DNA of 64,000 bases from Pyropia yezoensis (lineage: Eukaryota; Rhodophyta; Bangiophyceae; Bangiales; Bangiaceae): NCBI GenBank assembly GCA_009829735.1, contig CM020619.1, positions 28,918,063-28,982,062 of the forward strand, in the 5' to 3' direction. The position numbers and the translations under genes are program-made. Below the pieces are notes generated by a model, which saw only the letters and a program-made list of their open reading frames with translations, was not told the DNA's origin and searched no databases. Shown here piece after piece: positions 11,058 through 59,988 of this stretch. Numbering within the stretch: position 1 is the stretch's first letter; every line of letters starts with the position of its first letter.

Positions 11058-12573
11058 TCAGTGGGTAGACCCACTGCCCGAGGGAGGCCACTCACGCGTA
11101 AGCGCGTATACCTCCGTGCTCCACCGGTCGGCAATCTCACGACGGTCAATCGCCCGAGTTACCTCGGTGCAAAGCTGGACGAGGGTGCTGCGGCCAGCCT
11201 CCACGTCCTCCAGAGCTTTCTGGAGGCGGTCCAGCACGCCACCGAAGCAACGCGCTGACCCAACCAGCGCAGCACCTGGGGGGATATCCCCCCAGCTAAC
11301 AGAGAGACCCCCACGCATTGCGCGGGTAACAAGGGCGTCAACGTCTTCATACCAGAGACGGGGACCCCCGTCATGTAGGACAGGGGCGGGAGGTGACACT
11401 GGCGCAGCCAGAGGAGCCACAGGAGCCGACACGGCTACCACCGGAGCCGGTGGCACCTGATACGAGGCCCGGTAGGACCCTACCGAAGGGGCTCCACCGT
11501 AACCACGGCGGTACTCCGCCCGACGACGGGACACCTCACGCTCCCCACCCACAGAGCCCCACTCTCGGGGACGACGGCCAACCGCCGCCGGCATCGGGTT
11601 ACCGAACCACGGAGCAAGGACCTGAAGAGGGTCATGGATAACCATGGGAATACCCAGGTCAGCAACAGCCTCGGTGGATGCCCACCCATGGCAACTGGGC
11701 TCACCCGGCTGAGTACGCCGGACACGCAACGAGGACGAGGCAAGGGGGAAGCCCCAGCCTGCGGATCCCGGTACGGGGGAAGGTCCAACACCCCAGCCCA
11801 GTTCACGGCATCGTGAACAGCCAGCAGGGCCTCGAACTCCCGGGCCAACCCGGTCTTGGCGGCCATCAGATCCACGCCCAACTGCGCGATGTGCCGACGG
11901 ACACCCGTCGGGAGATGAAACAGACGACCCTGCCGGCGGACGGACAGCAAAAAGGATGAAGCCTGCCCGAGGGTAACCTCAAGGGTGAAGGTACCCTGCA
12001 ACGGGTGGACCGGTCGCGAGGCCAACACACTCCCGAAGTAGCGAAAGCAGGAGCCGGTGTCAAACCGGAAAGCAGGGGCGGGTTCCCACCCCTCCTGCCA
12101 TAGCGGCGGGCGCACGGGAGTGTATACCGGAGCACGACCGTTGCCGGTCTGCAACGCACACGTTATATCCGTGCGGAACGCATCCGCCATGACACCATGG
12201 TTACGTCGCCAACTCGACGCCGACTTCAACCCCGCCATGGGCGGGTAGGGAGCCGTCAACGACAGATACGGGGGTACCCCCGGGTAGTAGTCAAAGTCGG
12301 GATAACCGACCGGTACGGCTCACCGTCTCCCCAAACGCAACCGGCTCCGCCGCCGCCGCAATCCCCCGAGCACTAGCCGGGTAGTCAATCTCCCGCGGCA
12401 ACGCGGGGGCAATAAAGTCGCAGACCCCGAAGTTGGGGTCGAGGTAGACCTCACCCCGTCCACCCGGGTGCGCCAGAGCTGCGCATGCCGGTCGTCCGGC
12501 TGACTCAGGATCCAATGATGTTCCACCCGGACCGCGTTCGGCTGGTTGACCAGCCGCACCAACTCCCGCTCCC
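11058..12573 (-). pseudogene. F3 antisense ORF (broken), convergent with pol
   Basis: Opposite-strand ORF between pol and the missing 3' LTR. It is open in three pieces: 12573-12291, about 12320-11480 in a second frame, and 11729-11058 back in the first, so at least two frame changes are needed. The middle piece carries the block RQGRLFHLP followed by an amphipathic stretch ending VNWAGV, which aligns with the F1 (RRGMLWHLP) and F4 (HRGYLWHLP) antisense proteins. The last piece carries a helical C-terminal domain (GG..., VLDRL, VTRA...DRW) that resembles the C-terminal domain of the F2 protein. The N-terminus is lost in the gap. Function unknown; it is not a shadow of pol because it lies wholly downstream of it. 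Confidence 0.65.
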
Positions 12574-13073
12574 NNNNNNNNNNNNNNNNNNNNNNNNNNN
12601 NNNNNNNNNNNNNNNNNNNNNNNNNNNNNNNNNNNNNNNNNNNNNNNNNNNNNNNNNNNNNNNNNNNNNNNNNNNNNNNNNNNNNNNNNNNNNNNNNNNN
12701 NNNNNNNNNNNNNNNNNNNNNNNNNNNNNNNNNNNNNNNNNNNNNNNNNNNNNNNNNNNNNNNNNNNNNNNNNNNNNNNNNNNNNNNNNNNNNNNNNNNN
12801 NNNNNNNNNNNNNNNNNNNNNNNNNNNNNNNNNNNNNNNNNNNNNNNNNNNNNNNNNNNNNNNNNNNNNNNNNNNNNNNNNNNNNNNNNNNNNNNNNNNN
12901 NNNNNNNNNNNNNNNNNNNNNNNNNNNNNNNNNNNNNNNNNNNNNNNNNNNNNNNNNNNNNNNNNNNNNNNNNNNNNNNNNNNNNNNNNNNNNNNNNNNN
13001 NNNNNNNNNNNNNNNNNNNNNNNNNNNNNNNNNNNNNNNNNNNNNNNNNNNNNNNNNNNNNNNNNNNNNNNNN
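12574..13073. other. Assembly gap of exactly 500 N
   Basis: Fixed-length run of N. The true distance, and the adjacency of F3 and F2 here, are unknown. It hides the F3 3' LTR and the F2 5' LTR, if they exist. Confidence 0.99.
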
Positions 13074-13089
13074 TGCCAGAGGCACCGCT

Positions 13090-13311
13090 ATGACTGGTTC
13101 TACGGGTCTTCCTGAGACTTCGACTCCTGGGACCGGCCAAGCTTTTCCTCCCCTTGCGTCCTATGGGGCGGGGAGCTCCAAGACCGGTGACCGGAGCAGC
13201 CGTAGGCGTCGGCGTCGTCGCCGCCGCTCTAGCACCAGCGAGACCAGTTCCTCCAGCTCTGAGGAGGGATATGACTGGGATGCATCTCCCGGTCCTACCG
13301 GCGCAGGCTAG
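13090..13311 (+). pseudogene. F2 Gag N-terminal piece, 73 aa
   Basis: Short ORF from an ATG 17 bases after the gap, with a run of nine Arg followed by Ser/Glu-rich sequence. It stops at TAG 13309-13311, in the same frame as the gag ORF at 13420; a further TGA lies between. It probably represents the Gag N-terminus separated by mutation, or an upstream ORF. Confidence 0.45.
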
Positions 13312-14469: not shown

Positions 14470-17400
14470 GGCAGGCGCTCTCCCCAAGTGTCTTCCCGAA
14501 TCTCCAACGGCAGGGTACTTCTACCTGTTCTCCCCTTGCGTGCCGGGAGAAAGGACGGCAGTTACCTGCTCAACCGGTAGCCGCCTGGACACCCTGTTTG
14601 TTCAAGGGGACCTTGCTCGTCCTGCGTAAGGAAAACCTCAAGATTAATGCTCGTATGCGTGTGGGGGATAGCCTCCCCCAAGCTGTTACGCCGGTGGTCG
14701 ACACGGGAGCCGGACCAAGCGTCATCACTGAGAACCTGTTACCTCCGGGCTGGCGTCGACATGCCTGGAGAGCGCCTACCAAGACCCGGATTGTAGACGC
14801 ATCAGGTCAAACCTTACGACCGCTTGGCCGTCTTCCCGTCGCCATCTATGTCAACAATGAACCAATGCTTTTTCCCTTTCTAGTAGTCAAGACCTTATCA
14901 GTCCCCCTCATCCTAGGCTGGGACTTCCAGAAGCAGCATGTCAAGAGCATCCTACCCGGAGAAGGAAAGGTGCAGTTCAACCATGGGTTTGTGTCACCAG
15001 TGCTGGAGCACCTGGACACCAAGGTTCGTGTGGCCCAGAACCAGAAGGAACGCATCCCACCCTCTACCTTGACCCTCATCAAACCGGTGCTCCTACCTCC
15101 TCGCTCGGAGACCAAGGTTCAAGTCACGACCCGGACTGCAGGTCAATGCCTGATCTACGGACGCAAGGAATTTCTGGCGAAACACCGATTATACCTAGCC
15201 CATGGACATCACAAGAAGGTGGAGCGGCACACCCCGTTCTCGGTGCTGATCGTCAACGTGAGCCGGAAGCCAATAACCCTCGCCAAGGGCACTCGAGTTG
15301 GTACAGCAGAGCCTTACCGGGGGTCCGCCCGCGCTATGAGCAAGGAAGACCTCTTGAACCTGCAACAAGAGCTGGCATCCAACTTGACGGCCTTAGACGT
15401 ATCTCCGGAACAAGAGCAGGCTGGCCGTACTACTCCGAAGCCCGAACAAGCACCGCCCGGGATGCCGAAGGTCAACCAAGAAAACGTCCCTCCCGACTTG
15501 AAGGAGGCACTGGAGAAGCTTCTCCAGGAATATCGGCACCTGTGGTCCGGAGAGCTGGGCAAGATGGACGCCACCCTACACCGGATTCAACTCAAGCCAG
15601 ATGCCAAACCAGTGCACATGCACCCATACCGGGCTGGACCTCATCGCCGGGATGAGATTGAGAAGCAGGTTAACAAGATGCTCAAGATGGATGTTATCGA
15701 GCCGTCTGATGGCGAGTGGGCTTTCCCGGTGGTAGTCGTCCCGAAACCTGGCGGTCACTTCCGTTTCTGCGTTGACTACAGACGCCTGAACGAGATGACA
15801 GTCAAGGATGTATACCCGATACCCCGGATGGATGATTGCCTCGACTTTCTTGGTGATGCCACCCTCTTCTCGACGCTGGATTGTAATGCCGGTTACTGGC
15901 AGATCCCTCTGGCTGACGAGGACAAGGACAAGACAACCTTCACGTGCCACATGGGACTGTTCCGATGCAAGCGTCTCCCTTTTGGTCTCACTAATGCTCC
16001 GGCAACCTTCCAGAGAGCCATCGACATCATCCTGTCGGGGCTAAGGTGGAGAACATGTTTGGTCTACCTGGACGACATCATTGTTTTCTCCAAGACCCCA
16101 GCGGAACACCTGGAGCACCTTCGAGAGGTCCTGGCCCTCCTGTCCAAGGCTGGAGTTACCCTCAAGGCCGAGAAGTGCCACCTGTTTGAGACTGAGGTGG
16201 AGTACCTGGGGCACGTGCTGAGTCCGGGGGAGCTCCGAGTCAACGAGAAGAACATCAAGGCCCTCCGGCATGCACGGCAACCTAAAACCCAGACGGAACT
16301 CAAGAGCTTCCTGGGTATGTGCAACGTCTACCGCCGGTTCGTACGAGACTACGCTCTGATTGCCCGGCCCTTGACCAAGCTTACTAGCAAGAAGCTTCCA
16401 GCACAACTCCCGGTGTTCGACGAGAAGCAGACAGCAGCCTTCGAAGAGCTCAAGAAGCGCCTGACCACCACTCCAGTACTGGCGTTACCCAAGCGGGAGG
16501 GCCAGTTTGTTCTGGAGACTGATGCCTGTGGCGTCCAGGTGGGGTGCTCACTACTCCAGCAGCAACCTGATGGGCACTTCCTCCCGATAGGCTACTACAG
16601 TCGCGTCTTGACTCCAGCCGAGAAGAACTATTCCACGACCGAGCGCGAGTGCTTGGCGGTCGTCTGGGCTTGCTTCCTGTTACGTCCATATCTTGAAGGA
16701 CAAGAGTTCCTCATCCGGACGGACCACGCCAGTCTAAGGTGGCTGCTATGCATGGACAGCAGTCAAGGAAGGGTCGCCCGGTGGCGCCTACGCCTTTCGG
16801 AGTTCAAGTACAAGGTGTGCACCAGAGCAGGGAGGGAGCACCACTGCGCCGACACCATGTCCCGGCTGGAGACTCCTGCAGCCGATACCGGTCCTATCCC
16901 GGAGGAAATACCTTGCTTCATCCTCCCGAATGTCGGACGTGGCTGGCACGCTCCCCTGTACGAGACACCTGACGCTCATCAACCGGTAACCATTCACCGG
17001 ATGCTGGAGGCACAATTGACGGACCCTCAATGCTTGGAGCTTCGCCACCAAATGGACCTGAACCGGAACAGTCGCTTCTCCGAGTCTACAGACGGACTCC
17101 TGGTACGGGTGTCACCCTTCGATGGGGCAACTCAAGTCTACGTACCCCGGAGCCTACGGACTGACATCCTACGCCTGGAGCACTCGTCTCCCCAGGCCGG
17201 ACATCCTGGTATCAATCGGATGTATGCTTCCATGAGACGACATTATTACTGGGAAACCATGGCCAGTGACGTCCATAAGTGCCTGGAGGCTTGTATTTCT
17301 TGTGCAAGGAACCGGTTGTCCCAGAGGAAGAAGACTTCTAAGCTACGCCTATTCCCTGCGGCGGAGCCCTTTGCAAGCTTAAGCATGGACATCCTGGGGC

Positions 17401-18557
17401 CCCTACCTGAGACCTCCAGTGGCAACATATACCTGCTCATCATTTGTGACCGGTTCTCCAAGTTCACTCGAGCAATCCCGTTGAGAACCATCACGGCTCT
17501 GGATGTCACGTCGGCCTTCTGCGAGTACTGGATAGCTGCCTACGGCCCTCCAGACTCCGTCTTAACCGACAACGGTCCCCAGTTTGCATCCCTGTTCTTC
17601 CAAGGAGTCTGTGACCTGATGGGCATCAAGAACTTGTACACCACGACGTACCACCCTCAAACGAACGGCCAGGTGGAACGATTCAACCGGACCCTAGTGG
17701 ACATGCTACGGCACTACGTGGAGGAGCACCAAGAAGACTGGGACGAGCTCCTGGCTGTCCTCACTCTAGCCTACAACTCCCGAGTTCACCGGACAACGGG
17801 AGTCGCTCCACTCGACTTTGTCACCCCAAGGCGGCTGACCAACTTCTCCCTGGAAAGAATACCAGACGGTCTCCAGCCTGCACTGAAGTCAGGTCCCAAG
17901 GCAAAGGATGAGTTCCTGGAACAACTAAAGCTCCTGCTCCCAAGAGTCAAGGAGTCAATTTCAAAGACCCAGGAGCGATACAAGCGGGACTATGACAAGG
18001 GTGTCCGGGAAAAGAACAAGGAACTGGGTGGTGGCGACTGGGTTTTTGTGGACAACCATAGCAAGACCCGGGGGAAGCTGGACTCTAAGACGGATGGACC
18101 TTATGAGATTCTCAATACGGATGGCTGGACCTTCCTTCTAGACGTGGATGGCTCTCCGTACCGGGTGAGCAGCGACCATGTCACCCGAGCTCCACCACCA
18201 AGCCAACGGGACTTGACCCGGCGTAAGCGGACTGCGATACCCTGGCTATCCCAAGAAGAAGGTCGGGAATTTGTCTACGTCAAGTTTGTCGACCATGCCT
18301 GGAGAGATGGACGCCTGTACCTGCGAGTACGCTGGTTCGGTTTCAACCCGGCAGATGATACATGGGAACCCTCAAACCGGCTACCCATCGCGGACGTCTG
18401 TGCCTACACGCGACGGAACGGGATTGAGGGCACTCCCGTGGCCAGAGCCGGCAAGATTCTGGAGTCGGACACGGAGGAGGACCAAGAGGACGGGGCCACC
18501 CAAGACCCTCGGGACGAGACGAGCTCACCCGCAACGGATGCGGAACAAGAGGATTGA
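14463..18557 (+). CDS. pol: F2 Pol, about 1364 aa, intact
   Basis: Complete Ty3-type polyprotein read by -1 frameshift. Protease DTGA is at about residue 80, RT has FCVDYRRLN then YLDD at about 535-538, and RNase H has TERECLAVVWA. The integrase zinc region is HSSPQAGHPG...CISC, and its catalytic residues sit in MDILGP, TDNGPQF and GQVERFN. A chromodomain-like end has LYLRVRWFGF and DDTWEP, followed by an acidic tail (DTEEDQEDG). No stop or frameshift was seen, so this copy may be active. It converges with the antisense ORF 145 bases downstream. Confidence 0.9.
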   Translation, partial: RVGQALSPSVFPNLQRQGTSTCSPLACREKGRQLPAQPVAAWTPCLFKGTLLVLRKENLKINARMRVGDSLPQAVTPVVDTGAGPSVITENLLPPGWRRHAWRAPTKTRIVDASGQTLRPLGRLPVAIYVNNEPMLFPFLVVKTLSVPLILGWDFQKQHVKSILPGEGKVQFNHGFVSPVLEHLDTKVRVAQNQKERIPPSTLTLIKPVLLPPRSETKVQVTTRTAGQCLIYGRKEFLAKHRLYLAHGHHKKVERHTPFSVLIVNVSRKPITLAKGTRVGTAEPYRGSARAMSKEDLLNLQQELASNLTALDVSPEQEQAGRTTPKPEQAPPGMPKVNQENVPPDLKEALEKLLQEYRHLWSGELGKMDATLHRIQLKPDAKPVHMHPYRAGPHRRDEIEKQVNKMLKMDVIEPSDGEWAFPVVVVPKPGGHFRFCVDYRRLNEMTVKDVYPIPRMDDCLDFLGDATLFSTLDCNAGYWQIPLADEDKDKTTFTCHMGLFRCKRLPFGLTNAPATFQRAIDIILSGLRWRTCLVYLDDIIVFSKTPAEHLEHLREVLALLSKAGVTLKAEKCHLFETEVEYLGHVLSPGELRVNEKNIKALRHARQPKTQTELKSFLGMCNVYRRFVRDYALIARPLTKLTSKKLPAQLPVFDEKQTAAFEELKKRLTTTPVLALPKREGQFVLETDACGVQVGCSLLQQQPDGHFLPIGYYSRVLTPAEKNYSTTERECLAVVWACFLLRPYLEGQEFLIRTDHASLRWLLCMDSSQGRVARWRLRLSEFKYKVCTRAGREHHCADTMSRLETPAADTGPIPEEIPCFILPNVGRGWHAPLYETPDAHQPVTIHRMLEAQLTDPQCLELRHQMDLNRNSRFSESTDGLLVRVSPFDGATQVYVPRSLRTDILRLEHSSPQAGHPGINRMYASMRRHYYWETMASDVHKCLEACISCARNRLSQRKKTSKLRLFPAAEPFASLSMDILGPLPETSSGNIYLLIICDRFSKFTRAIPLRTITALDVTSAFCEYWIAAYGPPDSVLTDNGPQFASLFFQGVCDLMGIKNLYTTTYHPQTNGQVERFNRTLVDMLRHYVEEHQEDWDELLAVLTLAYNSRVHRTTGVAPLDFVTPRRLTNFSLERIPDGLQPALKSGPKAKDEFLEQLKLLLPRVKESISKTQERYKRDYDKGVREKNKELGGGDWVFVDNHSKTRGKLDSKTDGPYEILNTDGWTFLLDVDGSPYRVSSDHVTRAPPPSQRDLTRRKRTAIPWLSQEEGREFVYVKFVDHAWRDGRLYLRVRWFGFNPADDTWEPSNRLPIADVCAYTRRNGIEGTPVARAGKILESDTEEDQEDGATQDPRDETSSPATDAEQED

Positions 18558-18702: not shown

Positions 18703-20820
18703 CTACTCCCGGCGCGGACGCTGAGCCGCGGGAGTGTCCTCCGGCGCTGCCTCCGCGGCACGACGGGAACCGGAGGAAGACGGGATGACGTAGTGCGGTG
18801 GACGCGGCGCATCCCGGTATGACGCCATCGGAGTAGTACCAGTAGTTGCCGGTGGCTCCCGCTCATCCAGATATGTCCGTCGGCGCCGCTGGAAGCCCGT
18901 GAAGGTCTCTGACCACTGCTGGGCCAAGCCATGCCGCGTCAAAGTCGCCAGAAGTTCGCCAACCACCGGGCTGTTCGACATCTGACCGCTGTCCGCGCAA
19001 GCAAACACCCGGTCGACCACGTCGTTCAAGACACTGGCGTAAGTGCCCAGCACCAGAGAAGACCCGACGCCTTCAACCTGCACCGGAAGACGACCCAGCT
19101 GGTCTTCAATCATACCGACGTCGTACTGGTCGCATGTTGGACCACCTTGGTTCAGGTACCAGTCAGGCACCCGGAAGCGGGTAAGGCGCAGAGTCGGCGC
19201 CGGAATCTCGAACCGGCCCGAGGATGACACTACCGGACGGTCCACAACGGCCCCCGAGACCGGAGTGCCCAACTCCAGCGGAGGCACAGCGCCGCCGGCG
19301 TTGGAAGAAGGCGTCCGGGGTAGAGCGGCCGGAGTAATCGGCGACCGCACGGCCACTCCCAGACTCGCCGCAGACAAGCGCGGTGCCGGAGGAGCTTGAA
19401 GTACTGGCACAGCCGGAACAGGGCGCGGACGTGCCGGTGACGGTTCAGGCGAGGCGACCGGGGCGACAGGGGCAACAAGAGGAAGCGGAGCCGCCGCAGA
19501 CGCCCGACCGACCGCCGCGGCCCATCCCGACTCCTGCACCGGCGGCCCAACTGGCAGAAGATCAAGGGCGGCCGGAGCAGGAAAGCTACCTAGCTGCGGC
19601 CACGCCGGAAGCGGCGTCGCCAGCTGCACCTTGGCCGGAGAGGACTGGTAGACCACCTGCGCCCAACCGAAGCCATCCCGACGCGGGCGGTTCTGGTCGG
19701 CAATCGCGTTCAAGAAGTTCCGGTCATGCACCGGCACCAGACGCCGGAAGTCGATCATCGCCTGGAAGAGCTCCTTGTACTCCTCGTCCTGGCTGCACAG
19801 GAAGTCGACGGTCAACTTGTCGACAATCCAGACCATCAGGAGGTCAGGGAGAAACCAAAGCCGGTTGGACACCAAGACCTCATGAAGCCAGTGGTTGGCC
19901 GCCAAGACTGTCATCTCGGACGTGTACATCATGTACGGGATTGAGTGGAAGAAGCCCTTGATTGACGCCTGAGTCAAGGCGTCCAAGAAGTACCAGGTGC
20001 AAGGGATGCTGGAAGGAGCAAACCCGACCGGGATCTCGACTTCCTGCTGCTGCGGGATGACCTTGGGGTAGTATGCCGCCCGGTTAGCCTTGTCCAGCTT
20101 CCAGAACTCCTGGTGGTTGCAGCTTACAAGGAAGTCACGCTGACGCCCGCGTCGCTCACCCTGCTCCCGTGCCGGCGACAACCTGGAGTATTTCCGGGTC
20201 AAGAAAGGCGGCTCCAGAGCGACCATGCTCGGACGGGGGTCGCAGTTCAAGCTTCCCGACCCCTTGAGCGCCTCGTCCCAGACCTTGAGCGCCCGGTGGG
20301 CGTACCCTTCCTCCTCCGGCCACCGGAGAACGGACGCGGACACGCGACGCTCGGTCAAGGGTAGATCCAGTACCAGCGCGAAGGGGAGATCCTCCAGACG
20401 AGCAACCCAAGAGGAACCCGAGAAGCTCTGGGAGCGGTCTTGTGCCAGGCGCATCTGGTCCGCCGTATGAAGACGTGCCTTGTCCATCTCGGTCAAGACC
20501 CCGCGCTGGAGTTCCTTGCGCCAGAGGTCCAAGCAATCCTGCTGGCACTGGGCCGCGCCGGCGTTGCCGACCACCGTGGAGTAACGCCGGGCCGCCAGAG
20601 GGTCCTGCCCAAGAAGCATCTCCGGGAGACTCTCCGGGGGGGCCTCGACCGGGTGCATCGCGGAAGCCGGGGGAACTCGATCCGTCCCCGCCGTGGCGAC
20701 CGGCGCCGGCACCGACATCCGAGGAACCGGAGGCAGGAGAGGGGCACGACGACCCGAGCTCTCCTCCGCAATACTCGCCGCCGGAACCACGGGCCCAGCT
20801 TGGATCTCGGAACTGGACAT
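18703..20820 (-). CDS. F2 antisense ORF, 705 aa, unknown function
   Basis: Long intact ORF on the opposite strand to F2 gag-pol, between pol and the 3' LTR. The ATG at 20820 (MSSSEIQAGP) is chosen because it is shared with the right copy, where it opens a 706-aa ORF. The N-terminal 100 residues are low-complexity; a folded-looking core of about 150-400 includes YYPKVIPQQQEVEIPVGF, HWLHEVLVSNRLWFLPDLLM and a following helix. An Ala/Pro linker of about 420-540 follows, then a second domain near 560-680 and a basic end (RPRRE). No transmembrane segment, signal peptide, zinc finger or enzyme motif was recognised. Core blocks align with the F1 and F4 antisense proteins. The start lies 345 bases inside the LTR. 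Confidence 0.85.
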   Translation of the reverse strand: MSSSEIQAGPVVPAASIAEESSGRRAPLLPPVPRMSVPAPVATAGTDRVPPASAMHPVEAPPESLPEMLLGQDPLAARRYSTVVGNAGAAQCQQDCLDLWRKELQRGVLTEMDKARLHTADQMRLAQDRSQSFSGSSWVARLEDLPFALVLDLPLTERRVSASVLRWPEEEGYAHRALKVWDEALKGSGSLNCDPRPSMVALEPPFLTRKYSRLSPAREQGERRGRQRDFLVSCNHQEFWKLDKANRAAYYPKVIPQQQEVEIPVGFAPSSIPCTWYFLDALTQASIKGFFHSIPYMMYTSEMTVLAANHWLHEVLVSNRLWFLPDLLMVWIVDKLTVDFLCSQDEEYKELFQAMIDFRRLVPVHDRNFLNAIADQNRPRRDGFGWAQVVYQSSPAKVQLATPLPAWPQLGSFPAPAALDLLPVGPPVQESGWAAAVGRASAAAPLPLVAPVAPVASPEPSPARPRPVPAVPVLQAPPAPRLSAASLGVAVRSPITPAALPRTPSSNAGGAVPPLELGTPVSGAVVDRPVVSSSGRFEIPAPTLRLTRFRVPDWYLNQGGPTCDQYDVGMIEDQLGRLPVQVEGVGSSLVLGTYASVLNDVVDRVFACADSGQMSNSPVVGELLATLTRHGLAQQWSETFTGFQRRRRTYLDEREPPATTGTTPMASYRDAPRPPHYVIPSSSGSRRAAEAAPEDTPAAQRPRRE

Positions 20821-21575: not shown

Positions 21576-21837
21576 GGACCATCGGTGTTGGAACTGCAAC
21601 TCCGATGGTCACTGGGCATATGATTGCCCCAAGTTGAGTAAACGCATCCAACAACTTGTTAGGAATGCGAGTAAAAAGTCGGCTACGAACGAAGTACGTT
21701 CACGCCGCGAGGGTGGGTCTCGACCGGTCGTTGCGGTCGTCACACCCTCGGCGGAGGAGGCGGACACGTCGTCCTCGGACTCGTCGTCTTCCTCCCCGCC
21801 CTCAGATTCGGACGCCAAGTCGGCGGGAAACGAATGA
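21576..21837 (+). pseudogene. gag: F1 gag 3' fragment (zinc knuckle)
   Basis: Last 86 codons of Gag, with the knuckle CWNCNSDGHWAYDC and a Ser/Asp-rich tail ending AGNE. The upstream part is replaced by the F2 LTR. The intact counterpart is on the minus strand near 53200-53470. Confidence 0.85.
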
Positions 21838-21870
21838 CCGTTGGGGCTGGTCGTCCGAAGCTCACAACGG
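21825..21870 (+). promoter_or_regulatory. -1 ribosomal frameshift signal, F1 gag/pol
   Basis: Canonical G-GGA-AAC at 21825-21831, in frame two codons before the gag TGA. After a 6-nt spacer, CCGTTG (21838-21843) can pair with CAACGG (21865-21870) across a 21-nt loop. The same signal is at 53167-53212 in copy E. An ATG overlaps the stop as ATGA at 21834-21837 in the pol frame, so reinitiation is an alternative. Confidence 0.75.
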
Positions 21871-24800
21871 CAGCCTCGGCCAAGTGGGCCAGGAGGACGA
21901 ACCAACCGTGCCGGATACTGCGGCGACCTAAGGGAGTCCGCCCACCTCGGGTAGGACTCCCCAAGAACGTAAACCCACGTCGGGTCATCGCGGTGCTGAC
22001 GGGTGAGAACTTCCAGGTGGCTGGACGGGTGCAACTTGCCCCCGGCCGTGCATGCTGTACCCGTATCGTACTTGATACCGGGTCAGGAGCCTCCTTGATA
22101 CGCAAGTCGCTATTACCAAAGGAGGTGAAGCTCCAACGCTGGAGGTCCAAAGCTGACCATATGATTGACATCAATGGTGGGGTACTTCCCATCGTTGGTG
22201 CCGTGACCCTACCAACTAGGTTGGGGACCCATGAGGTCGACGTGACCTATGGCGTAGTTGAGAATATATCGGTACCCCTGCTTCTGGGTACCCCTTATGT
22301 TGTTACACAAGTGCCTTTGATTTGTGGCCCTGAGTACTGGGTCAAGTTGATGAATGGGGAGACTATCCCCATCCTTGGTAAGGGAAAGTCTGTGGCTCCT
22401 GTGACAGTCTCACAGTCGAAGCCTGTTTGCTCTGTGAGGGAAGGGTTTACTGCTACCCTGCGTCTAGCCCGTAAAGTCACGTTGCCCCCCAACTTGGTGG
22501 CGCACGTTGATGTTGTAACTGATTTTACGGGGAACGGGTTGGTGCACCCTCACCCCCGTCTTGCTCGCAAGCACCGAGTGCATGTTGCCCTTGGCACGAT
22601 GGACTCCAAAGCCGGAGTCCCGTGGAGGATCCAGGTGATGAACCTGAGCCCGACGCCCAAGTACTTCAAGTCGGGAGCCAAGTTCGGCTATATCGACCAA
22701 CACGAGGGACCGGTAGTAGCGGTCACCCTCAACGCGGGCGCAAGTAGCGTCCCGAGGTCCGGAAAGGAGAAGCATCAAGCCAAGTCGGCCGCCTCTCCTC
22801 GACCCCATGTGAACATGGAGGGTGTCCCCCCCAGGTTGAGGGTTCAAGTTGAACGCCTCTTGGACCAATCTCACAAGTTGTGGGATGGTCAATTGGGACT
22901 CATGAGAGCCACCCAACACCGGATCGAGTTGAAACCCGGTGCACCCCCTATACGCCAACAACCGTATAGGGGAGGACCTCGTTCAAGGGCCCTCGTTAAG
23001 GAGCAAGTTGCTCGCATGGAGGCCCTCGATGTGATCGAGGCCAGCAACGCCGAGTGGGCGAGTCCGGTGGTTATCGTCCCCAAAGTTGATGGGACCCCCC
23101 GGTTTTGTATCGACTACCGTAAGCTCAACGAGAGCACGGTGAAGGACAGTTATCCCCTACCTAGGATGGATGACTGTCTGGACTCTCTGGGGGAGGCAAA
23201 CGTGTTCTCTACCCTGGACTGTAACGCGGGGTACTGGCAAATTCCCATTGCCCCGGAGGACAGGCATAAAACTACCTTTACCTGTCACTGTGGTACCTAC
23301 CAGTGCAAGCGTCTACCGTTTGGTCTGTGTAACGCGCCGGCAACTTTCCAGCGCGCTATGGACATGATTCTGGCCGGAGTACGGTGGCAGATCTGTCTTG
23401 TGTACCTAGACGATATCATTGTGTTCTCCCGAAGTCCGGAGGAACACATTGGCCATCTTGGCCAGGTGTTCAAGCTACTTGCTGACGCCGGTGTGTCACT
23501 GAAGGCGAGTAAGTGCCACCTCTTTACTCAAGAGGTGGAGTACTTGGGACATGTTGTCCATCCGGGGCGTCTCAGTGTTAACGAGAAGAACTTGAGGGCC
23601 ATTCGTAAGGCTCAGTACCCCCGGACCCAGACCCAGATGAGGAGCTTCCTCGGGATGTGTAACGTGTACCGACGTTTCACCAAGGGCTTCGACAAGGTGG
23701 CGAAGCCGTTGAATGAGCTAGTGAGCTCAACGCTACCGAAGAACCTGCCTCCCCCAAGTCGGGTGGAGCAGGAATCCTTTGAGACTCTTCGGGACCTTCT
23801 GCTGAAGCCCCCCATCTTGGCTATTCCCAGGTTGGGAGGCCACTACATCCTGGATGTGGACGCTAGCTACGACCAACTTGGTTGTGTGTTGCTTCAGCAG
23901 CAGCCGGACAAGGAGTACTTGCCGGTGGGATACTTTAGTAAGGGGCTGAACTCGGCCGAGAAGAACGACGGAGTCACCGAGTTGGAAAGACTCGCAGTGG
24001 TGTGGGCGGTGACGTCACTTCGTCACTACCTGGAGGGTGAGAAGTTCCTCATCCGCTGTGACCACCGCGCGTTGCACTTCATCTTTAAGACGGACTGTAC
24101 GAACACTCGTCTCAACCGGTGGAGGGTGCGACTGGCACCCTTCAACTTTGACATTGAATACCGACCTGGCAGGCAACATGCCCTTGCCGACGGCCTCTCT
24201 CGGGTACCTACCGAGGGGCTGGACACTAACCCAGTCGATGAGGACATCCCCATCGTGGGGGTAGTCACGCGCTCGGGTCAGGCGTTGAACCCCGAGGCGC
24301 CAGGGAACAAGAAGTACTTGCCCCTGTCCCTGGACGAGGTGGTGAAGGCCCAGGCCGAGGATCCCTTCTGCAAGTCGCAGAGGGATATACTGGATACAGT
24401 GGTAGAGACGCGTTTCTTTCTGGGAGACGATGGCCTCCTCATGAGGAGGGGGGTATTCCAGGGGACCGAACAACTTGTCGTCCCCGCATCCCTCAAGGAC
24501 AGTATCCTTGAGAGGGAGCACAACGCTCCCACGGGTGGACACCTGGGGTCTAGTAAACTGTGCCAGACCCTGAGGACCAGGTACTACTGGCGGTCCATGG
24601 TGGTAGACATCTACAGTTGGGTGGCTGCCTGCACAAGTTGTGCACAGAATCGTCTGATGGAACGGCGGCCTACTACGGCTATACTATTGTTCCCGGCCAA
24701 GGAGCCCTTCGCCGCGTTGGCGATGGACATCCTTGGGCCACTGCCCGTGACCGAGGAGGGCAACCAGTACCTCCTGGTCATCTGTGACCGCTTCACGAAA

Positions 24801-35110: not shown

Positions 35111-35127
35111 CACTCCCCTCTCCTCAG
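35111..35127 (-). other. Polypurine tract of F1-D
   Basis: In element sense CTGAGGAGAGGGGAGTG directly precedes the LTR start TGGCAG. The same tract is at 46825-46841 in copy E. Confidence 0.8.
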
Positions 35128-39189: not shown

Positions 39190-39191
39190 AA

Positions 39192-46357: not shown

Positions 46358-46824
46358 TGTGGCAAAAACCACATGCACACACGGCACCCAAGTTGGGGCG
46401 GTGTGCTAGGGCTGCCTCCCGTGTCGGGGGAACCGGAAGAAGTGCAAGTCGCACACACTCTGTCCCTGTTGTGGGGCAAACCCCCCACGGACAAACAAGA
46501 GGATGGTGTGTGGTCCAACAGTTTCTTGGTCGGGACGGGGACGCAGGGCCAAGCCCCGCTGTCCCTCCCCTTATCCCCCCCGGGTCCACTCAGAATCTCG
46601 CCACTCAGAATCTCCCACCCCAGCACCTGCCCACCGGGCCACACGAAAATTCAAGACGATAAATGCAGAAAACCCTCAAATCCAAGTTGGATTTACTACT
46701 AAGCTAACTATCCCAAACTTAGGGAATATGGACCCAAATGCAGGGGGAGGAACGGATCAGGCTAGTGGCCTGCCGCCCCTTGCATGGCACGTGTTGCCCC
46801 CCTACCTGGGGGTCAATACTGCCA
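46358..46824 (-). repeat. F1-E 3' LTR (467 bp)
   Basis: Identical to the F1-D 5' LTR at all but about two positions by eye. Confidence 0.9.
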
Positions 46825-46841
46825 CACTCCCCTCTCCTCAG
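46825..46841 (-). other. Polypurine tract of F1-E
   Basis: Same sequence and place as at 35111-35127. Confidence 0.8.
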
Positions 46842-49219: not shown

Positions 49220-52200
49220 TCACGTTGAGGGAGGGCTGTTAGGGTCTATCTCATTCCGGGCACAGTACGCCCGGACCTTCTCAGCGGGAAGGTCCTCCAC
49301 ATACTCCCACGTATCATCCTTGGCTTTGTAGCCAAACCAACGCACCCTCAACATGAGGCGGTTAGTATCCTCATCCCATCCGTGGTCGATGAACTTATCG
49401 AACACGTACTCCTGCGGGCCCTGTTTGGCCGCAGGCAGTGAGGGGAGGCGCCACGCTTCCAAAGCACGCGCCCAAGCTGGGTCGCCTGCAGGCGGTGGTG
49501 CAACTTTGAACACGTCCTGTCCGTTCACTGTGCGGACCCCATCGTCACTTTCGATGGTGAAGCGCCGCCCATCAGTACGAAGGACCTGGTACGGTCCCTT
49601 CGTCTGGAATACCAGCTTACCCCCAGTTGGGGTGTGCGAGTGTACCAGCACCCAGTCACCCTGCTCGGGGACATGTTTAGCATTGCGCACCTTTTTGTCA
49701 AAGGTACGCTTGTAGCGCTTTTGTGCTTTGTCCATCTCAGCCCTGACTTTAGGGATGAGGTTTTCAAGCCTAGCGGCGAACTCCGCCTTACTCTCAGTAG
49801 GAGTAGGCGTACTGCCAGCATCCTCCCTAGTTCGGAGCGACCGCCGCACGGCAATAGACCGCACGCGACGGGGGGTCACAAAAGCGAGGGGTACTTCCCC
49901 TGTAGATGAGTGAACCTGCGAATTGTAGGCAGTAGTAAGGATAGAAATGTACTGGTCCCACGTTTTCACGTGCTCACTCACATAGTGGCGCAGCTGCCTA
50001 ACAATAGTTTTGTTGAAGCGCTCCACCTGCCCATTAGTTTGTGGGTGGTAGGGGGTGGCATAGTTTGCCTTAACCCCCAACATATCCAGCACTCCCTGAA
50101 ACAGTACAGACGCAAATTGCGGTCCATTGTCCGATAGTGTACTATCTGGGATGCCATACGCGGCAACCCAGTGATCTAGGAAGGCTGACACGACCGACAT
50201 GGCCGTGATCTCTGCCAGTGGGATCGCTCGCGTAAGTTTCGTGAAGCGGTCACAGATGACCAGGAGGTACTGGTTGCCCTCCTCGGTCACGGGCAGTGGC
50301 CCAAGGATGTCCATCGCCAACGCGGCGAAGGGCTCCTTGGCCGGGAACAATAGTATAGCCGTAGTAGGCCGCCGTTCCATCAGACGATTCTGTGCACAAC
50401 TTGTGCAGGCAGCCACCCAACTGTAGATGTCTACCACCATGGACCGCCAGTAGTACCTGGTCCTCAGGGTCTGGCACAGTTTACTAGACCCCAGGTGTCC
50501 ACCCGTGGGAGCGTTGTGCTCCCTCTCAAGGACACTGTCCTTGAGGGATGCGGGGACGACAAGTTGTTCGGTCCCCTGGAATACCCCCCTCCTCATGAGG
50601 AGGCCATCGTCTCCCAGAAAGAAACGCGTCTCTACCACTGTATCCAGTATATCCCTCTGCGACTTGCAGAAGGGATCCTCGGCCTGGGCCTTCACCACCT
50701 CGTCCAGGGACAGGGGCAAGTACTTCTTGTTCCCTGGCGCCTCGGGGTTCAACGCCTGACCCGAGCGCGTGACTACCCCCACGATGGGGATGTCCTCATC
50801 GACTGGGTTAGTGTCCAGCCCCTCGGTAGGTACCCGAGAGAGGCCGTCGGCAAGGGCATGTTGCCTGCCAGGTCGGTATTCAATGTCAAAGTTGAAGGGT
50901 GCCAGTCGCACCCTCCACCGGTTGAGACGAGTGTTCGTACAGTCCGTCTTAAAGATGAACTGCAACGCGCGGTGGTCACAGCGGATGAGGAACTTCTCAC
51001 CCTCCAGGTAGTGACGAAGTGACGTCACCGCCCACACCACTGCGAGTCCTTCCAACTCGGTGACTCCGTCGTTCTTCTCGGCCGAGTTCAGCCCCTTACT
51101 AAAGTATCCCACCGGCAAGTACTCCTTGTCCGGCTGCTGCTGAAGCAACACACAACCAAGTTGGTCGTAGCTAGCGTCCTCATCCAGGATGTAGTGGCCT
51201 CCCAACCTGGGAATAGCCAAGATGGGGGGCTTCAGCAGAAGGTCCCGAAGAGTCTCAAAGGATTCCTGCTCCACCCGACTTCGGGGAGGCAGGTTCTTCG
51301 GTAGCGTTGAGCTCACTAGCTCATTCAACGGCTTCGCCACCTTGGCGAAGCCCTTGGTGAAACGTCGGTACACGTTGCACATCCCGAGGAAGCTCCTCAT
51401 CTGGGTCTGGGTCCGGGGGTACTGAGCCTTACGAATGGCCCTCAAGTTCTTCTCGTTAACACTGAGACGCCCCGGATGGACAACATGTCCCAAGTACTCC
51501 ACCTCTTGAGTAAAGAGGTGGCACTTACTCGCCTTCAGTGACACACCGGCGTCAGCAAGTAGCTTGAACACCTGGCCAAGATGGCCAATGTGTTCCTCCG
51601 GACTTCGGGAGAACACAATGATATCGTCTAGGTACACAAGACAGATCTGCCACCGTACTCCGGCCAGAATCATGTCCATAGCGCGCTGGAAAGTTGCCGG
51701 CGCGTTACACAGACCAAACGGTAGACGCTTGCACTGGTAGGTACCACAGTGACAGGTAAAGGTAGTTTTATGCCTGTCCTCCGGGGCAATGGGAATTTGC
51801 CAGTACCCCGCGTTACAGTCCAGGGTAGAGAACACGTTTGCCTCCCCCAGAGAGTCCAGACAGTCATCCATCCTAGGTAGGGGATAACTGTCCTTCACCG
51901 TGCTCTCGTTGAGCTTACGGTAGTCGATACAAAACCGGGGGGTCCCATCAACTTTGGGGACGATAACCACCGGACTCGCCCACTCGGCGTTGCTGGCCTC
52001 GATCACATCGAGGGCCTCCATGCGAGCAACTTGCTCCTTAACGAGGGCCCTTGAACGAGGTCCTCCCCTATACGGTTGTTGGCGTATAGGGGGTGCACCG
52101 GGCTTCAACTCGATCCGGTGTTGGGTGGCTCTCATGAGTCCCAATTGACCATCCCACAACTTGTGATATTGGTCCAAGAGGCGTTCAACTTGAACCCTCA

Positions 52201-53206
52201 ACCTGGGGGGGACACCCTCCATGTTCACATGGGGTCGAGGAGAGGCGGCCGACTTGGCTTGATGCTTCTCCTTTCCGGACTTCGGGTCGCTACTTGCGCC
52301 CGCGTTGAGGGTGACCGCTACTACCGGTCCCTCGTGTTGGTCGATATAGCCGAACTTGGCTCCCGACTTGAAGTACTTGGGCGTCGGGCTCAGGTTCATC
52401 ACCTGGATCCTCCACGGGACTCCGGCTTTGGAGTCCATCGTGCCAAGGGCAACATGCACTCGGTGCTTGCGAGCAAGACGGGGGTGAGGGTGCACCAACC
52501 CGTTCCCCGTAAAATCAGTTACAACATCAACGTGCGCCACCAAGTTGGGGGGCAACGTGACTTTACGGGCTAGACGCAGGGTAGCAGTAAACCCTTCCCT
52601 CACAGAGCAAACAGGCTTCGACTGTGAGACTGTCACAGGAGCCACAGACTTTCCCTTACCAAGGATGGGGATAGTCTCCCCATTCATCAACTTTACCCAG
52701 TACTCAGGGCCACAAATCAAAGGCACTTGTGTAACAACATAAGGGGTACCCAGAAGCAGGGGTACCGATATATTCTCAACTACGCCATAGGTCACGTCGA
52801 CCTCATGGGTCCCCAACCTAGTTGGTAGGGTCACGGCACCAACGATGGGAAGTACCCCACCATTGATGTCAATCATATGGTCAGCTTTGGACCTCCAGCG
52901 TTGGAGCTTCACCTCCTTTGGTAATAGCGACTTGCGTATCAAGGAGGCTCCTGACCCGGTATCAAGTACGATACGGGTACAGCATGCACGGCCGGGGGCA
53001 AGTTGCACCCGTCCAGCCACCTGGAAGTTCTCACCCGTCAGCACCGCGATGACCCGACGTGGGTTTACGTTCTTGGGGAGTCCTACCCGAGGTGGGCGGA
53101 CTCCCTTAGGTCGCCGCAGTATCCGGCACGGTTGGTTCGTCCTCCTGGCCCACTTGGCCGAGGCTGCCGTTGTGAGCTTCGGACGACCAGCCCCAACGGT
53201 CATTCG
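49220..53206 (-). CDS. pol: F1 Pol (copy E), about 1328 aa
   Basis: Intact frame with the same motifs as copy B (DTGS, YLDD, TELEGLAVVWA, HHCC, DDE, chromodomain). It has the usual Gly in the RNase H block where copy B has Arg, and DEDASYDQLG where copy B has DVDASYDQLG; the second change adds an acidic residue in RNase H next to a conserved Asp. It is reached by -1 frameshift from gag at 53206-53212. This looks the most likely source of F1 enzymes in the window. Confidence 0.9.
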   Translation of the reverse strand, partial: RMTVGAGRPKLTTAASAKWARRTNQPCRILRRPKGVRPPRVGLPKNVNPRRVIAVLTGENFQVAGRVQLAPGRACCTRIVLDTGSGASLIRKSLLPKEVKLQRWRSKADHMIDINGGVLPIVGAVTLPTRLGTHEVDVTYGVVENISVPLLLGTPYVVTQVPLICGPEYWVKLMNGETIPILGKGKSVAPVTVSQSKPVCSVREGFTATLRLARKVTLPPNLVAHVDVVTDFTGNGLVHPHPRLARKHRVHVALGTMDSKAGVPWRIQVMNLSPTPKYFKSGAKFGYIDQHEGPVVAVTLNAGASSDPKSGKEKHQAKSAASPRPHVNMEGVPPRLRVQVERLLDQYHKLWDGQLGLMRATQHRIELKPGAPPIRQQPYRGGPRSRALVKEQVARMEALDVIEASNAEWASPVVIVPKVDGTPRFCIDYRKLNESTVKDSYPLPRMDDCLDSLGEANVFSTLDCNAGYWQIPIAPEDRHKTTFTCHCGTYQCKRLPFGLCNAPATFQRAMDMILAGVRWQICLVYLDDIIVFSRSPEEHIGHLGQVFKLLADAGVSLKASKCHLFTQEVEYLGHVVHPGRLSVNEKNLRAIRKAQYPRTQTQMRSFLGMCNVYRRFTKGFAKVAKPLNELVSSTLPKNLPPRSRVEQESFETLRDLLLKPPILAIPRLGGHYILDEDASYDQLGCVLLQQQPDKEYLPVGYFSKGLNSAEKNDGVTELEGLAVVWAVTSLRHYLEGEKFLIRCDHRALQFIFKTDCTNTRLNRWRVRLAPFNFDIEYRPGRQHALADGLSRVPTEGLDTNPVDEDIPIVGVVTRSGQALNPEAPGNKKYLPLSLDEVVKAQAEDPFCKSQRDILDTVVETRFFLGDDGLLMRRGVFQGTEQLVVPASLKDSVLEREHNAPTGGHLGSSKLCQTLRTRYYWRSMVVDIYSWVAACTSCAQNRLMERRPTTAILLFPAKEPFAALAMDILGPLPVTEEGNQYLLVICDRFTKLTRAIPLAEITAMSVVSAFLDHWVAAYGIPDSTLSDNGPQFASVLFQGVLDMLGVKANYATPYHPQTNGQVERFNKTIVRQLRHYVSEHVKTWDQYISILTTAYNSQVHSSTGEVPLAFVTPRRVRSIAVRRSLRTREDAGSTPTPTESKAEFAARLENLIPKVRAEMDKAQKRYKRTFDKKVRNAKHVPEQGDWVLVHSHTPTGGKLVFQTKGPYQVLRTDGRRFTIESDDGVRTVNGQDVFKVAPPPAGDPAWARALEAWRLPSLPAAKQGPQEYVFDKFIDHGWDEDTNRLMLRVRWFGYKAKDDTWEYVEDLPAEKVRAYCARNEIDPNSPPST

Positions 53207-58085: not shown

Positions 58086-58106
58086 CTCCTTCCCCCCCTT
58101 TCTAGT
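58086..58106 (-). other. Candidate polypurine tract of F4
   Basis: On + a pyrimidine tract CTCCTTCCCCCCCTTTCT; in element sense AGAAAGGGGGGGAAGGAG, then TGAGGAA as LTR start. Confidence 0.5.
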
Positions 58107-58572
58107 CAGGGTTGAGGGGTGTGCGCACCCCGAGTTGGGGGTGTTGCACTCGGTCGCCGGCGGTGGGACTCGGCCGCCGGTGCGGGGTCTTCTCTCCCCT
58201 TCGTGTGTGCGGGCGGGTGTGTGCCTTCCCGCCGCTGCTCCCTCGCGTCGGCGGGTCTGTCTCTTCCCGCCGTGCGGTTGGTGTCGTTGGTTGGGGTGGT
58301 GTCTTCCCCCTTCCGCCCCTGTGTCGGGCGTCTTCGTTGTCGGTGGGGGCGTGGGTTGTGTTCCCCCCCCTTTGTCCTCGTTGGCGGGGTTGTGTCTTCC
58401 CCGCGCTGCCCCTTGTGTCGGGCTTCTTCGTTGTCGGTGGGGGGTGTGGGTCGTGTCCCCCCCCCTTGCTCTACCTCACCGAGTCGGTCAAGGTTGGTTG
58501 TCGTCGGAGGGGGAGCGGGTCGTGTCCCCCCCCGTGCTCAACCTCACCGAGTCGGTCAAGGTTGGTCGCGTG
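58107..58572. repeat. Degenerate tandem repeats in the F4 antisense leader
   Basis: A block CACCGAGTCGGTCAAGGTTGG occurs twice about 76 bp apart (near 58480 and 58545), and a unit with GTGTCGGGC, TTCTTCGTTGTCGGTGGGG and a C-run occurs twice about 95 bp apart (near 58320 and 58415). The frame is open without ATG, so it is treated as leader. Confidence 0.6.
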
Positions 58573-59988
58573 ATGGCGGGTGAGCCGAGTCGGCCTTTGT
58601 CCCCGTCTCCGACGTCTCTGTCGGACAAGCGACGGACGGGAGAGGAGGCCCTCGGGACTGAGGAGTCTCTCAGCCGGGGGTCGGCCATGGAGACGACTCG
58701 TCCCGGGCGAGGGTCGGAGGCGGCCGCCTCAGCCGTCCCCGCCCCATCACCTCCTACTGCCCCCTCGGCCGTGGTCCCACCGGGGGATGGGTCTTCCAAC
58801 CCGGTGGCGGAAGGGGATGTAACTCCCATCCCCCGCCTTCCTGAGTCACGGCTGCTACTCCCGCCGCGGCCCCGTCCTCCTATGGGGCCCCGAGCCTGGG
58901 CGCCTCCCAAGTCAGTCGGGGAGCTTCCCGACTGCAAGCTCAAGGATGTCTACTTGATCATCCCCGAGCCACGGCGGACCGACGTATGGTACCGCCGGAC
59001 TCGTCGGTACCCCAACCAGGTGACTCTACCTGATGGTGTGGTCTGCGACCTACCAGCGCTACTCTGCCTGGCGGACGCGCCTGAAGTCCAGGCGTTGTCA
59101 ACCTCCCTCGCCTTGGGGTCGGGCGACAAGGAGATCGACGACACCCACGCGGTTGTGTCTACCGAGTGGTGTGCCCTTCCCCGTCCCTACCTGGGCGGAG
59201 AGGACGCCCACGCCCAACACGGCGTGGTGCGAGAGGAGTTCCGACTCCGGGGCTCCTCGGGCTTCCTCATCCACGGGTCGCGGGTGGAGTTCACCCACGT
59301 ACCTCTGGAGGAGCGTGAGCACCAGTACCCTTTTCTCCCAGGGTGGTGGGAGACAGTGGAGGTACCTTGTGGGTTTCCGGCTCGGATCCCCCTCCTCGTT
59401 GCCTACTTTGGCTCCGTGCTACGCTCCAGCTCGGAGAGTAACCGGGTCTTCGCCTACCTCGCCACGCACTGGGTGGTCGTGGTGACTCGGGGCTGGTACT
59501 CCGATGTAGTCCATCGGGGTTACCTGTGGCACCTCCCACCGGCTCTGGTGGAGGGTATGGAAACCCTTGGCTTCCACTGGTTAGCCTTGGGCGCGGGGGA
59601 CCTGGCTCCGTTCCTCCTTAAGGGTATGGTCACCCTGCACAATCGACTCGATTGGGCGCAGCTGGAACCCTTCCTCCGCCGCAACAAGCGTCCAGAGCCG
59701 GTGTTGGAGAGTGAGCCACCCCGGGAGTTCGTCCATGTCACCCATACTCTGGTGCAGGGACAGCTGTTCTTGCGTGAGGGGTTGGGGGACTCTTCCCTTC
59801 CCTACGCAGAGGGGGTTACTCCCTCTACGTCGCCCCCTGGCTCTGGGTGGGCGACATCATCGGCGACGACTCGTCGTGGTGCTCATCGAGGAGCCCCTCG
59901 AAGCCGCGGGCGAGCTGTGCCGACGACTTCCCCGCGGGTCGCGACTCCCATTTATTGTCCGGATACCATCATCACTCTCGATGGTTAA
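58573..59988 (+). CDS. F4 antisense ORF, 471 aa, C-terminus replaced
   Basis: First ATG of the frame (MAGEPSRPLS). The core is strongly like F1: PGWWETVEVPCGFP, YLATHWVVVVTRGWY, HRGYLWHLPPALVEGME and LREGLGDSSLPYAEGV. After about residue 420 the sequence stops resembling F1, runs through an Arg/Ser/Thr-rich stretch and then reads backwards through the end of pol (59940-59988), so the Pro-rich linker's remainder, helical segment and R/S tail are missing. Function unknown. Confidence 0.75.
   Translation: MAGEPSRPLSPSPTSLSDKRRTGEEALGTEESLSRGSAMETTRPGRGSEAAASAVPAPSPPTAPSAVVPPGDGSSNPVAEGDVTPIPRLPESRLLLPPRPRPPMGPRAWAPPKSVGELPDCKLKDVYLIIPEPRRTDVWYRRTRRYPNQVTLPDGVVCDLPALLCLADAPEVQALSTSLALGSGDKEIDDTHAVVSTEWCALPRPYLGGEDAHAQHGVVREEFRLRGSSGFLIHGSRVEFTHVPLEEREHQYPFLPGWWETVEVPCGFPARIPLLVAYFGSVLRSSSESNRVFAYLATHWVVVVTRGWYSDVVHRGYLWHLPPALVEGMETLGFHWLALGAGDLAPFLLKGMVTLHNRLDWAQLEPFLRRNKRPEPVLESEPPREFVHVTHTLVQGQLFLREGLGDSSLPYAEGVTPSTSPPGSGWATSSATTRRGAHRGAPRSRGRAVPTTSPRVATPIYCPDTIITLDG

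What the first reader, a model, noticed from the sequence alone, without database searches (positions are those of the whole stretch)
11058..59988. A conserved antisense ORF, tail-to-tail with pol, in four different Ty3/gypsy families
Every element with a visible pol 3' end has a long opposite-strand ORF between pol and the 3' LTR: F3 11058-12573, F2 18703-20820 and 28886-31006, F1 25929-27872, 35451-37394 and 47165-49108, F4 58573-59988. The proteins differ widely between families yet share aligned blocks: RRGMLWHLP (F1), HRGYLWHLP (F4), RQGRLFHLP (F3), SNRLWFLP (F2); QVEVPYGFP / TVEVPCGFP / EVEIPVGF; and LREGLG in F1 and F4. Antisense extra ORFs are known in some plant Tat-lineage elements, but I recognise no domain here. 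It would be an ancient accessory gene of this lineage with its own transcription direction.
Basis: partly seen in the sequence, partly recalled or inferred. Interest (0 to 1): 0.92.

Follow-up and report, generated by a model that had tools for sequence, protein, structure and literature searches.

The report
Conserved antisense gene in seaweed retrotransposons
Families of jumping genes in the genome of nori seaweed share an extra gene written backwards behind their enzyme gene; its sequence has been kept by natural selection, resembles no protein we could find, and may help the elements control themselves in the cell nucleus.

Summary
Confirmed and extended. All seven elements seen at the pol end carry a long opposite-strand ORF tail-to-tail with pol, longer than in any of 500 dinucleotide shuffles for each family. 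The four families' proteins share one core (a profile without F3 finds F3 at 2.9e-10, best reversed control 0.013). Of fifteen integrase sites picked before reading downstream, ten have the gene, four of them in a new family, F5; one more, F6, with a Dam domain in pol, probably has it. The antisense protein is under purifying selection: F2 w 0.20, F5 0.21, F4 subfamilies 0.22-0.39. Relatives occur in Pyropia vietnamensis and Porphyra umbilicalis. No significant Pfam, PDB or fold match; the TRP28 domain of plant Retand antisense ORFs was not found. A gag-pol-deleted F1 derivative with the gene is repeated in the genome. Best reading: an old antisense-coded accessory protein, probably nuclear and regulatory. 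The gene is shown; transcription and function are not. The window's F3 and F4 copies are damaged.

The parts
11058..12573 (-). F3 antisense ORF remnant (frames 11480-12259 and 11058-11729; 5' end cut by N run 12574-13073)
   Evidence: core found by F1+F2+F4+F5 profile, E 2.9e-10
18703..20820 (-). F2a antisense ORF, 705 aa
   Evidence: w 0.203 against F2b; 63 of 63 scored genome copies open (best first, lower bound)
28886..31006 (+). F2b antisense ORF
25929..27872 (-). F1a antisense ORF, 647 aa
   Evidence: 64 of 68 scored genome copies open (best first, lower bound)
35451..37394 (+). F1b antisense ORF, open, in a deletion-derivative element
47165..49108 (+). F1c antisense ORF
58573..59988 (+). 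F4 antisense ORF; C-terminal part lost by a deletion across the pol/antisense junction
   Evidence: full-length relative P0001, 655 aa
7920..10577 (+). F3 pol, 3' part (RT to integrase)
14598..18557 (+). F2a pol
31149..34673 (-). F2b pol; its similarity to F2a stops at 34643, where F1b begins
21834..25817 (+). F1a pol
49220..53203 (-). F1c pol
37506..38501 (-). F1b pol remnant, 331 aa open frame; deletion junction at 38306-38310
59857..63585 (-). F4 pol, C-terminus lost in the same deletion
34644..35111 (-). F1b 3' LTR (468 bp)
39192..39659 (-). F1b 5' LTR (468 bp); GTAGA at 34639-34643 and again 3 bases beyond 39659
46358..46825 (-). F1c 3' LTR; 339 bases lie between it and the antisense ATG at 47165

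Best explanation
Each of these Ty3/gypsy families carries an accessory gene on the opposite strand between pol and the 3' LTR. Shown: it is a protein-coding gene, kept by purifying selection in the families where this could be measured (F2, F4, F5), and homologous in at least five families (probably six) in the same place and orientation. By one predicted structure (F5) and by eye it has a low-complexity N-terminal part, a folded core of about 230 residues, a proline-rich or Arg/Ser-rich linker and a helical C-terminus. Inferred: it is transcribed from a promoter in or next to the 3' LTR, towards pol; the protein enters the nucleus and regulates the element's own transcription, RNA handling or integration, as proposed for the plant gene23/TRP28 proteins and for retroviral antisense proteins. 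It need not be linked to a working gag-pol, since a gag-pol-deleted derivative that holds the gene has multiplied.
For: Coding and selection: F2a/F2b 97 differences, 37 nonsynonymous and 60 synonymous where relocation predicts 67.0 and 27.9 (0 of 500 reach 60); codon positions 23/19/56 inside the ORF, 2/5/4 just upstream of the ATG; F5 w 0.212 at dS 1.13, pol 0.088; nine F4 between-subfamily pairs w 0.22-0.39. Ancestry; relatives in two other Bangiales. Fold: F5 model mean pLDDT 60.9, pTM 0.53; ten-residue blocks 73-94 over residues 21-210 and 75-80 over 231-250, with 62 and 50 between. Nuclear hint: basic clusters in F1 and F2 and an Arg/Ser-rich stretch in F1 and F6; highest 19-residue hydropathy 1.54 in five proteins tested, two of them partial. 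Derivative: 40 of 40 scored places carry the F1b deletion junction; comparing coordinates, 9 of the 40 lie at the expected distance from an antisense ORF listed, 8 of the 9 without a stop.
Against: No transcript, promoter or protein was seen. F1 gives no clean test: the two window pairs have w 0.69 and 1.7 on 6 differences each, and six pairs use loci chosen by protein score, which favours low dN; one close F4 pair (L029/L035, 32 differences) has w 1.13. The N-terminal 190 residues of F2 show no codon-position bias (10/6/8). Direct F2-F3 comparison fails (E 0.14) and F3-F5 (7.2e-4) is little better than the best reversed control (0.0024). No recognised domain or fold, so the nuclear role rests on composition and analogy. 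For F6, the C-terminal match does not beat shuffles (13 of 1000 reach it) nor does the F5 profile alone (21 of 1000).
Confidence: 0.55

Rival explanations
1. The region works as antisense RNA (or small-RNA source) that damps the element, and the reading frame is incidental.
For: Antisense transcripts with such roles are discussed for other elements (PMC7264820, section 8 read); orientation fits.
Against: Selection acts on the amino-acid frame: third-position bias and w about 0.2 in F2 and F5; similarity between families is seen in the protein frame.
Confidence: 0.08
2. The protein is structural or particle-associated (an extra capsid- or envelope-like protein) made from an antisense message.
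Against: By the notes such Z are not above noise for helical bundles (best row Sec61, 5.4). Foldseek has no hit at E <= 0.001 in PDB or BFVD. No sequence link to the three gag proteins of the same elements (15 of 15 hhalign comparisons E >= 0.07). No strongly hydrophobic segment.
Confidence: 0.15
3. It acts at integration or on host chromatin: a partner of the integrase/chromodomain that steers targeting or counters host silencing.
For: F1b holds the antisense gene and an open 331-aa frame from the integrase C-terminus and chromodomain region, and its deletion junction is repeated in the genome; basic tails.
Against: The derivative may be carried along by recent amplification; selection within it was not measured, nor was the 331-aa frame checked in other copies. 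F3 and the window F4 pol gave no Pfam chromodomain hit.
Confidence: 0.22
4. A captured host gene carried along with little function for the element.
For: No similarity to other known proteins was found.
Against: Present in five or six families in the same place and orientation, selected in those measured, trees without conflict with integrase. Three of the four P. vietnamensis hits are near-copies of each other (P0003, P0004, P0006), as expected of a repeat.
Confidence: 0.05

Closest known systems
[quoted passage not shown] TRP28, PF04195)
   Same: Same place, same orientation, present in most families of a lineage, function unknown, nuclear role proposed (PMC11963269, passages seen, some from the abstract; PMC7264820, passages and sections 7 and 8).
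   Different: No TRP28 domain found; host is a red alga; pol of F1, F2, F5 and F6 has a C-terminal chromodomain-like region, whereas Retand is non-chromovirus.
Antisense genes of HTLV-type retroviruses (APH-2 named in a PMC11963269 passage; HBZ recalled)
   Same: Coded on the opposite strand; HTLV has an antisense promoter in the 3' LTR (PMC7264820, section 8).
   Different: No sequence or Pfam relation found; splicing and promoter untested here.
Chromodomain Ty3/gypsy elements (chromoviruses)
   Same: RT, RNase H, integrase order with a chromodomain-like end in F1, F2, F5, F6.
   Different: Extra antisense gene; the searches listed no report of one in chromoviruses (titles and abstract starts seen; only the papers named here were opened).

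Membership tests
Plant Retand-type antisense aORF (TRP28) | ORF antisense to gag-pol, between pol and 3' LTR | tested here: met
   for seven elements; LTR placed for F1b and F1c only
Plant Retand-type antisense aORF (TRP28) | TRP28 domain PF04195 | tested here: not met
   not among families matched by the 20 members of A2 or the 20 of A3 at E <= 10 (HMMER filters apply); 0 matches in the whole genome (no plant positive control)
Plant Retand-type antisense aORF (TRP28) | carried by a non-chromovirus RT lineage | tested here: inconclusive
   Chromo hits in F1, F2, F5, F6 pol (E 2.6e-4 to 4.8e-4) lie below Pfam's cut-off; no RT tree with plant references was made
Ty3/gypsy (order of domains) | RT and RNase H upstream of integrase | tested here: met
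   F1, F2, F3, F4; for F5 and F6 only the part from integrase on was read
Chromovirus | chromodomain at pol C-terminus | tested here: inconclusive
   as above; no hit in F3 or in the deleted F4 copy
Env-like extra ORF | sense orientation and transmembrane segment | tested here: not met
   antisense; highest 19-residue hydropathy 1.54 in five proteins, two partial
HBZ-like antisense protein | bZIP domain (recalled) | tested here: not met
   no bZIP family among Pfam matches at E <= 10 (HMMER filters apply)

The most novel reading that the evidence does not exclude
A new protein family, unrelated to TRP28, arose once in the ancestor of red-algal chromodomain-type Ty3/gypsy elements and works as an antisense-coded nuclear regulator with its own promoter, independently repeating the arrangement of plant Retand elements and of HTLV-type viruses; gag-pol-deleted derivatives travel with it as their main intact gene, so the protein acts for the element lineage apart from gag-pol.
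Probability: 0.4. Interest if true: 0.75.

Novelty: new variant of a known kind. Interest (0 to 1): 0.64.

Why it matters
Whether the antisense ORFs of plant retrotransposons are genes with a purpose has stayed open; their function is called unknown in passages of PMC7264820 and PMC11963269. A protein without detected relation to them, in the same place and orientation in red algae and under measured protein-level selection in several families, suggests that an antisense accessory gene between pol and the 3' LTR is a repeatedly reached solution. It also gives a deeply diverged protein family on which function and structure can be tested.

Tried and rejected
Structure: the first AlphaFold2 job (F4, P0001) gave mean pLDDT 35.4 and was not searched. 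The F5 model gave no Foldseek match at E <= 0.001 in PDB or BFVD; the second look by VIA-align rested almost wholly on residues 354-432, so the confident core was barely tested and is not shown to be a new fold. Profile against PDB sequences: two weak HemK rows at E 0.23 and 0.24, rejected. F1 alone against PDB sequences: none.

A supposed new family at L061 proved to be a rearranged F1. A resemblance by eye of the FV.V...LREGLG block to the chromodomain was not pursued; Pfam Chromo is not among the matches. A bacterial-type promoter scan found nothing and says nothing here. My reading after that the F6 element has no such gene was reversed when 1.2 kb more was read.

Copy counts from the genome search are lower bounds, best first; open-frame fractions from them (F1 64 of 68, F2 63 of 63, F4 77 of 91, F3 136 of 147 rows; counted by eye) are biased upward and not used as a test of selection.
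Full report
Setting. The window is G000:C2:28918063-28982062 of a 107,475,971-base assembly in 11 contigs. Its three large contigs are 43,592,136, 34,331,705 and 29,385,039 bases, which match scaffolds S3, S2 and S1 (43.6, 34.3, 29.4 Mbp) of Pyropia yezoensis in PMC7423979 (passages seen). The paper says that 48.0% of that genome is repeats, LTR retrotransposons predominating. So the host is very probably the nori alga Neopyropia yezoensis; this is inference from contig lengths and from hits in sister species.

Observation. Seven elements of four families are seen at the pol end in the window and all seven have the opposite-strand ORF. Between pol stop and antisense stop lie 111 bases in F1a and 145 in F2a; in the window F4 copy the two frames overlap because a deletion removed both ends. 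F1 LTRs are 468 bp, and 339 bases lie between F1c's 3' LTR and the antisense ATG. No dinucleotide shuffle of the stretch behind pol had as long a stop-free run (0 of 500 in each of F1a, F2a, F3, F4).

Homology among families. BLAST: F1 and F4 36% over 288 aa (E about 1e-42); F2 against F1 or F4 23-26% (E about 4e-6 to 4e-7) in a small database. A profile of F4+F1 finds F2 at 2.4e-12 and F3 at 7e-6 among 938 six-frame ORFs of the window; best reversed control for that profile 0.048. Against this, profiles that include the basic or proline-rich ends also hit reversed low-complexity ORFs (F1 profile 9.8e-7, F1+F2+F4 profile 7e-4, F4 profile 0.014), so I count core matches only. Profile-profile comparison over F1-F5: nine of ten pairs E <= 7.2e-4 (weakest F3-F5, probability 26%), F2-F3 fails (0.14); the best of 20 reversed controls is 0.0024 and of 15 gag controls 0.074. 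A profile of F1+F2+F4+F5 finds F3 at 2.9e-10, best reversed control 0.013.

Test in other elements. From 150 integrase (rve) places listed I chose 15 for spread of score and mostly long frames, before reading what lay downstream of them (nine, six, the six after seeing the nine). This is not a random sample. Ten carry the gene antisense behind pol: L069, L072, L073, L077, L079 (F1), L070 (F2), and L065, L068, L075, L076 of a new family F5 (E 4.6e-22 to 4.3e-16 with the F1+F2+F4 profile); L069, L075 and L076 hold stops or shifts. Of the other five, L074 is Copia (RVT_2), L071 is an F5-like copy with F3 sequence within 600 bases of the pol frame, L066 is an F5-like copy without a match, L078 is unidentified. 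L067 is a further family, F6: no match in the first 3 kb, but with 1.2 kb more its antisense frame is at least 750 codons, and its core (a segment chosen after the match was seen) scores 19.5 bits with the five-family profile against a maximum of 5.4 in 1000 shuffles and -3.1 reversed. With the F5 profile alone it does not beat shuffles (21 of 1000 reach it), the C-terminal match fails (13 of 1000), and hhalign links it to F1 only (4.4e-4; four others 0.05 or worse). F6 is probable, not proven.

Selection. dN/dS (NG86) in the antisense frame: F2a/F2b 0.203 (pol of the same pair 0.103); F5 L065/L068 0.212 at dS 1.13 (pol C-terminus 0.088); F1/F4 0.51 at dS 1.74, where pol is saturated. F4: of 32 loci (L009-L040) 13 copies were used, mostly those with one full-length match, and 12 of their 78 pairs were computed; nine between subfamilies gave 0.22-0.39, three close pairs 0.40, 1.13 and 0.125. 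F1: eight pairs, 0.05-1.7; six use loci picked by protein score, which favours low dN, and the two window pairs have six differences each. Relocating each difference to a site of the same base and CpG state gave fewer synonymous changes than observed in all 500 trials for F2 and for eight of the nine F4 between-subfamily pairs (1 of 500 for the ninth). Substitution with period three starts at the ATG in F2: 23/19/56 inside, 2/5/4 in the stop-free stretch before it; it is seen in core (3/5/19), linker (6/7/20) and C-terminus (3/1/9) but not in the N-terminal 190 residues (10/6/8). One search lists no ORF of 200 aa or more on the pol strand inside the F1 and F2 antisense ORFs. So the constraint is on the antisense protein, about half as strict as on pol.

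Spread and age. F4's protein has nine relatives at 42-64% identity, five of them named (four Pyropia vietnamensis, one Porphyra umbilicalis) and two more hits at 91 and 98% (11 hits; only the 8000 candidates sharing most words were scored). F1 and F2 found one 97% entry each under the same cap. Trees of integrase and of the aORF core both join F1 with F4 and set F3 far out; F2 and F5 are unresolved in the aORF tree, and the tool warns that F3 and L067 meet as long branches. I take this as no conflict with joint descent, not as proof.

The protein. Pfam at E <= 10 gave only single weak hits over the 20 rows of A2 and 20 of A3, which share many sequences (DUF7639 0.023, CCD_aECM 0.11, Hamartin 2.3), and DUF6214 at 0.014 for one F3 frame; PDB sequences gave nothing credible. 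The F5 model has a confident, mostly helical core at about residues 18-250 with a terminal hairpin (231-247), a disordered linker and a less certain helical C-terminus. No fold match stands out; the fold is unknown, not shown to be new. LLPPxPR recurs in the N-terminal part of F2 and F4, and LLLPPRPRP is in F3. F1 and F6 have Arg/Ser-rich stretches, F2 an RRRR cluster.

Deletion derivative. F1b (34644-39659) has both LTRs, with GTAGA at one flank and again 3 bases beyond the other; compared with F1c it lacks gag and most of pol, and it keeps the antisense ORF and a 331-aa open pol remnant. Its junction, queried with about 100 bases on either side, is found at full length, 97-100% identical, in 40 of 40 scored places (2564 candidates). 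By coordinates, nine of the 40, F1b included, lie at the expected distance from an antisense ORF, eight of these without a stop; for the other 31 the ORF was not examined. Retention may be hitch-hiking on a recent burst.

Mechanism. Shown: a selected protein gene in antisense orientation, shared by the families of this lineage. Inferred: antisense promoter near the 3' LTR, nuclear protein, regulation of the element. For the analogy: maize Grande gene23 is transcribed antisense from a promoter upstream of it and its protein is nuclear (PMC7264820, sections 7 and 8 read), and 97% of Retand clusters code TRP28 antisense (PMC11963269, passages). Integration or chromatin targeting, and a particle protein, are the main rivals.

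Novelty. [quoted passage not shown] The protein family and the host lineage look new: searches for antisense ORFs in gypsy, red-algal, chromovirus, Porphyra and Pyropia retrotransposon papers listed no such report in the held library; most subscription papers are not in it.

Noticed in passing
L067 (G000:C1:34414001-34417000): A Ty3/gypsy pol of a related lineage (F6) runs past its chromodomain into a Dam match (PF05869, 2.7e-7, 30.8 bits, cut-off 28.1), a DNA adenine methylase-type domain that I recall from DIRS elements; seven rows share its score of 51.9 bits, four of them with a 1673-codon frame.
   Followed up: partly
34644-39659: F1b is one of at least 40 places with the same gag-pol deletion junction; nine of these are known to hold the antisense ORF, eight open.
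   Followed up: partly
45185-46357: F1c's 3' LTR abuts and seems to interrupt an ORF pair of another element or gene; only a weak Pfam hit (DUF1258, 0.0029).
   Followed up: no
904-1515: ORF with a helix-turn-helix (HTH_23, 1.8e-7), by recall like the start of a mariner/IS630-type transposase; an F1 LTR fragment lies at 1-316.
   Followed up: no
L042-L060: Several diverged F3 copies match the window copy's first frame through to its end; in L042, translated, the C-terminal part is open in another frame. Whether this is an old shared indel or a programmed shift was not settled.
   Followed up: partly
21576-28134: F1a lies without LTRs exactly between two oppositely oriented F2 elements, its ends matching F1c 46903 and 53461; origin of this arrangement unclear.
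   Followed up: no
12574-13073 and 54461-54960: Two 500-base runs of N (probably scaffold gaps) lie near where 5' LTRs of F2a and F1c would be expected.
   Followed up: no
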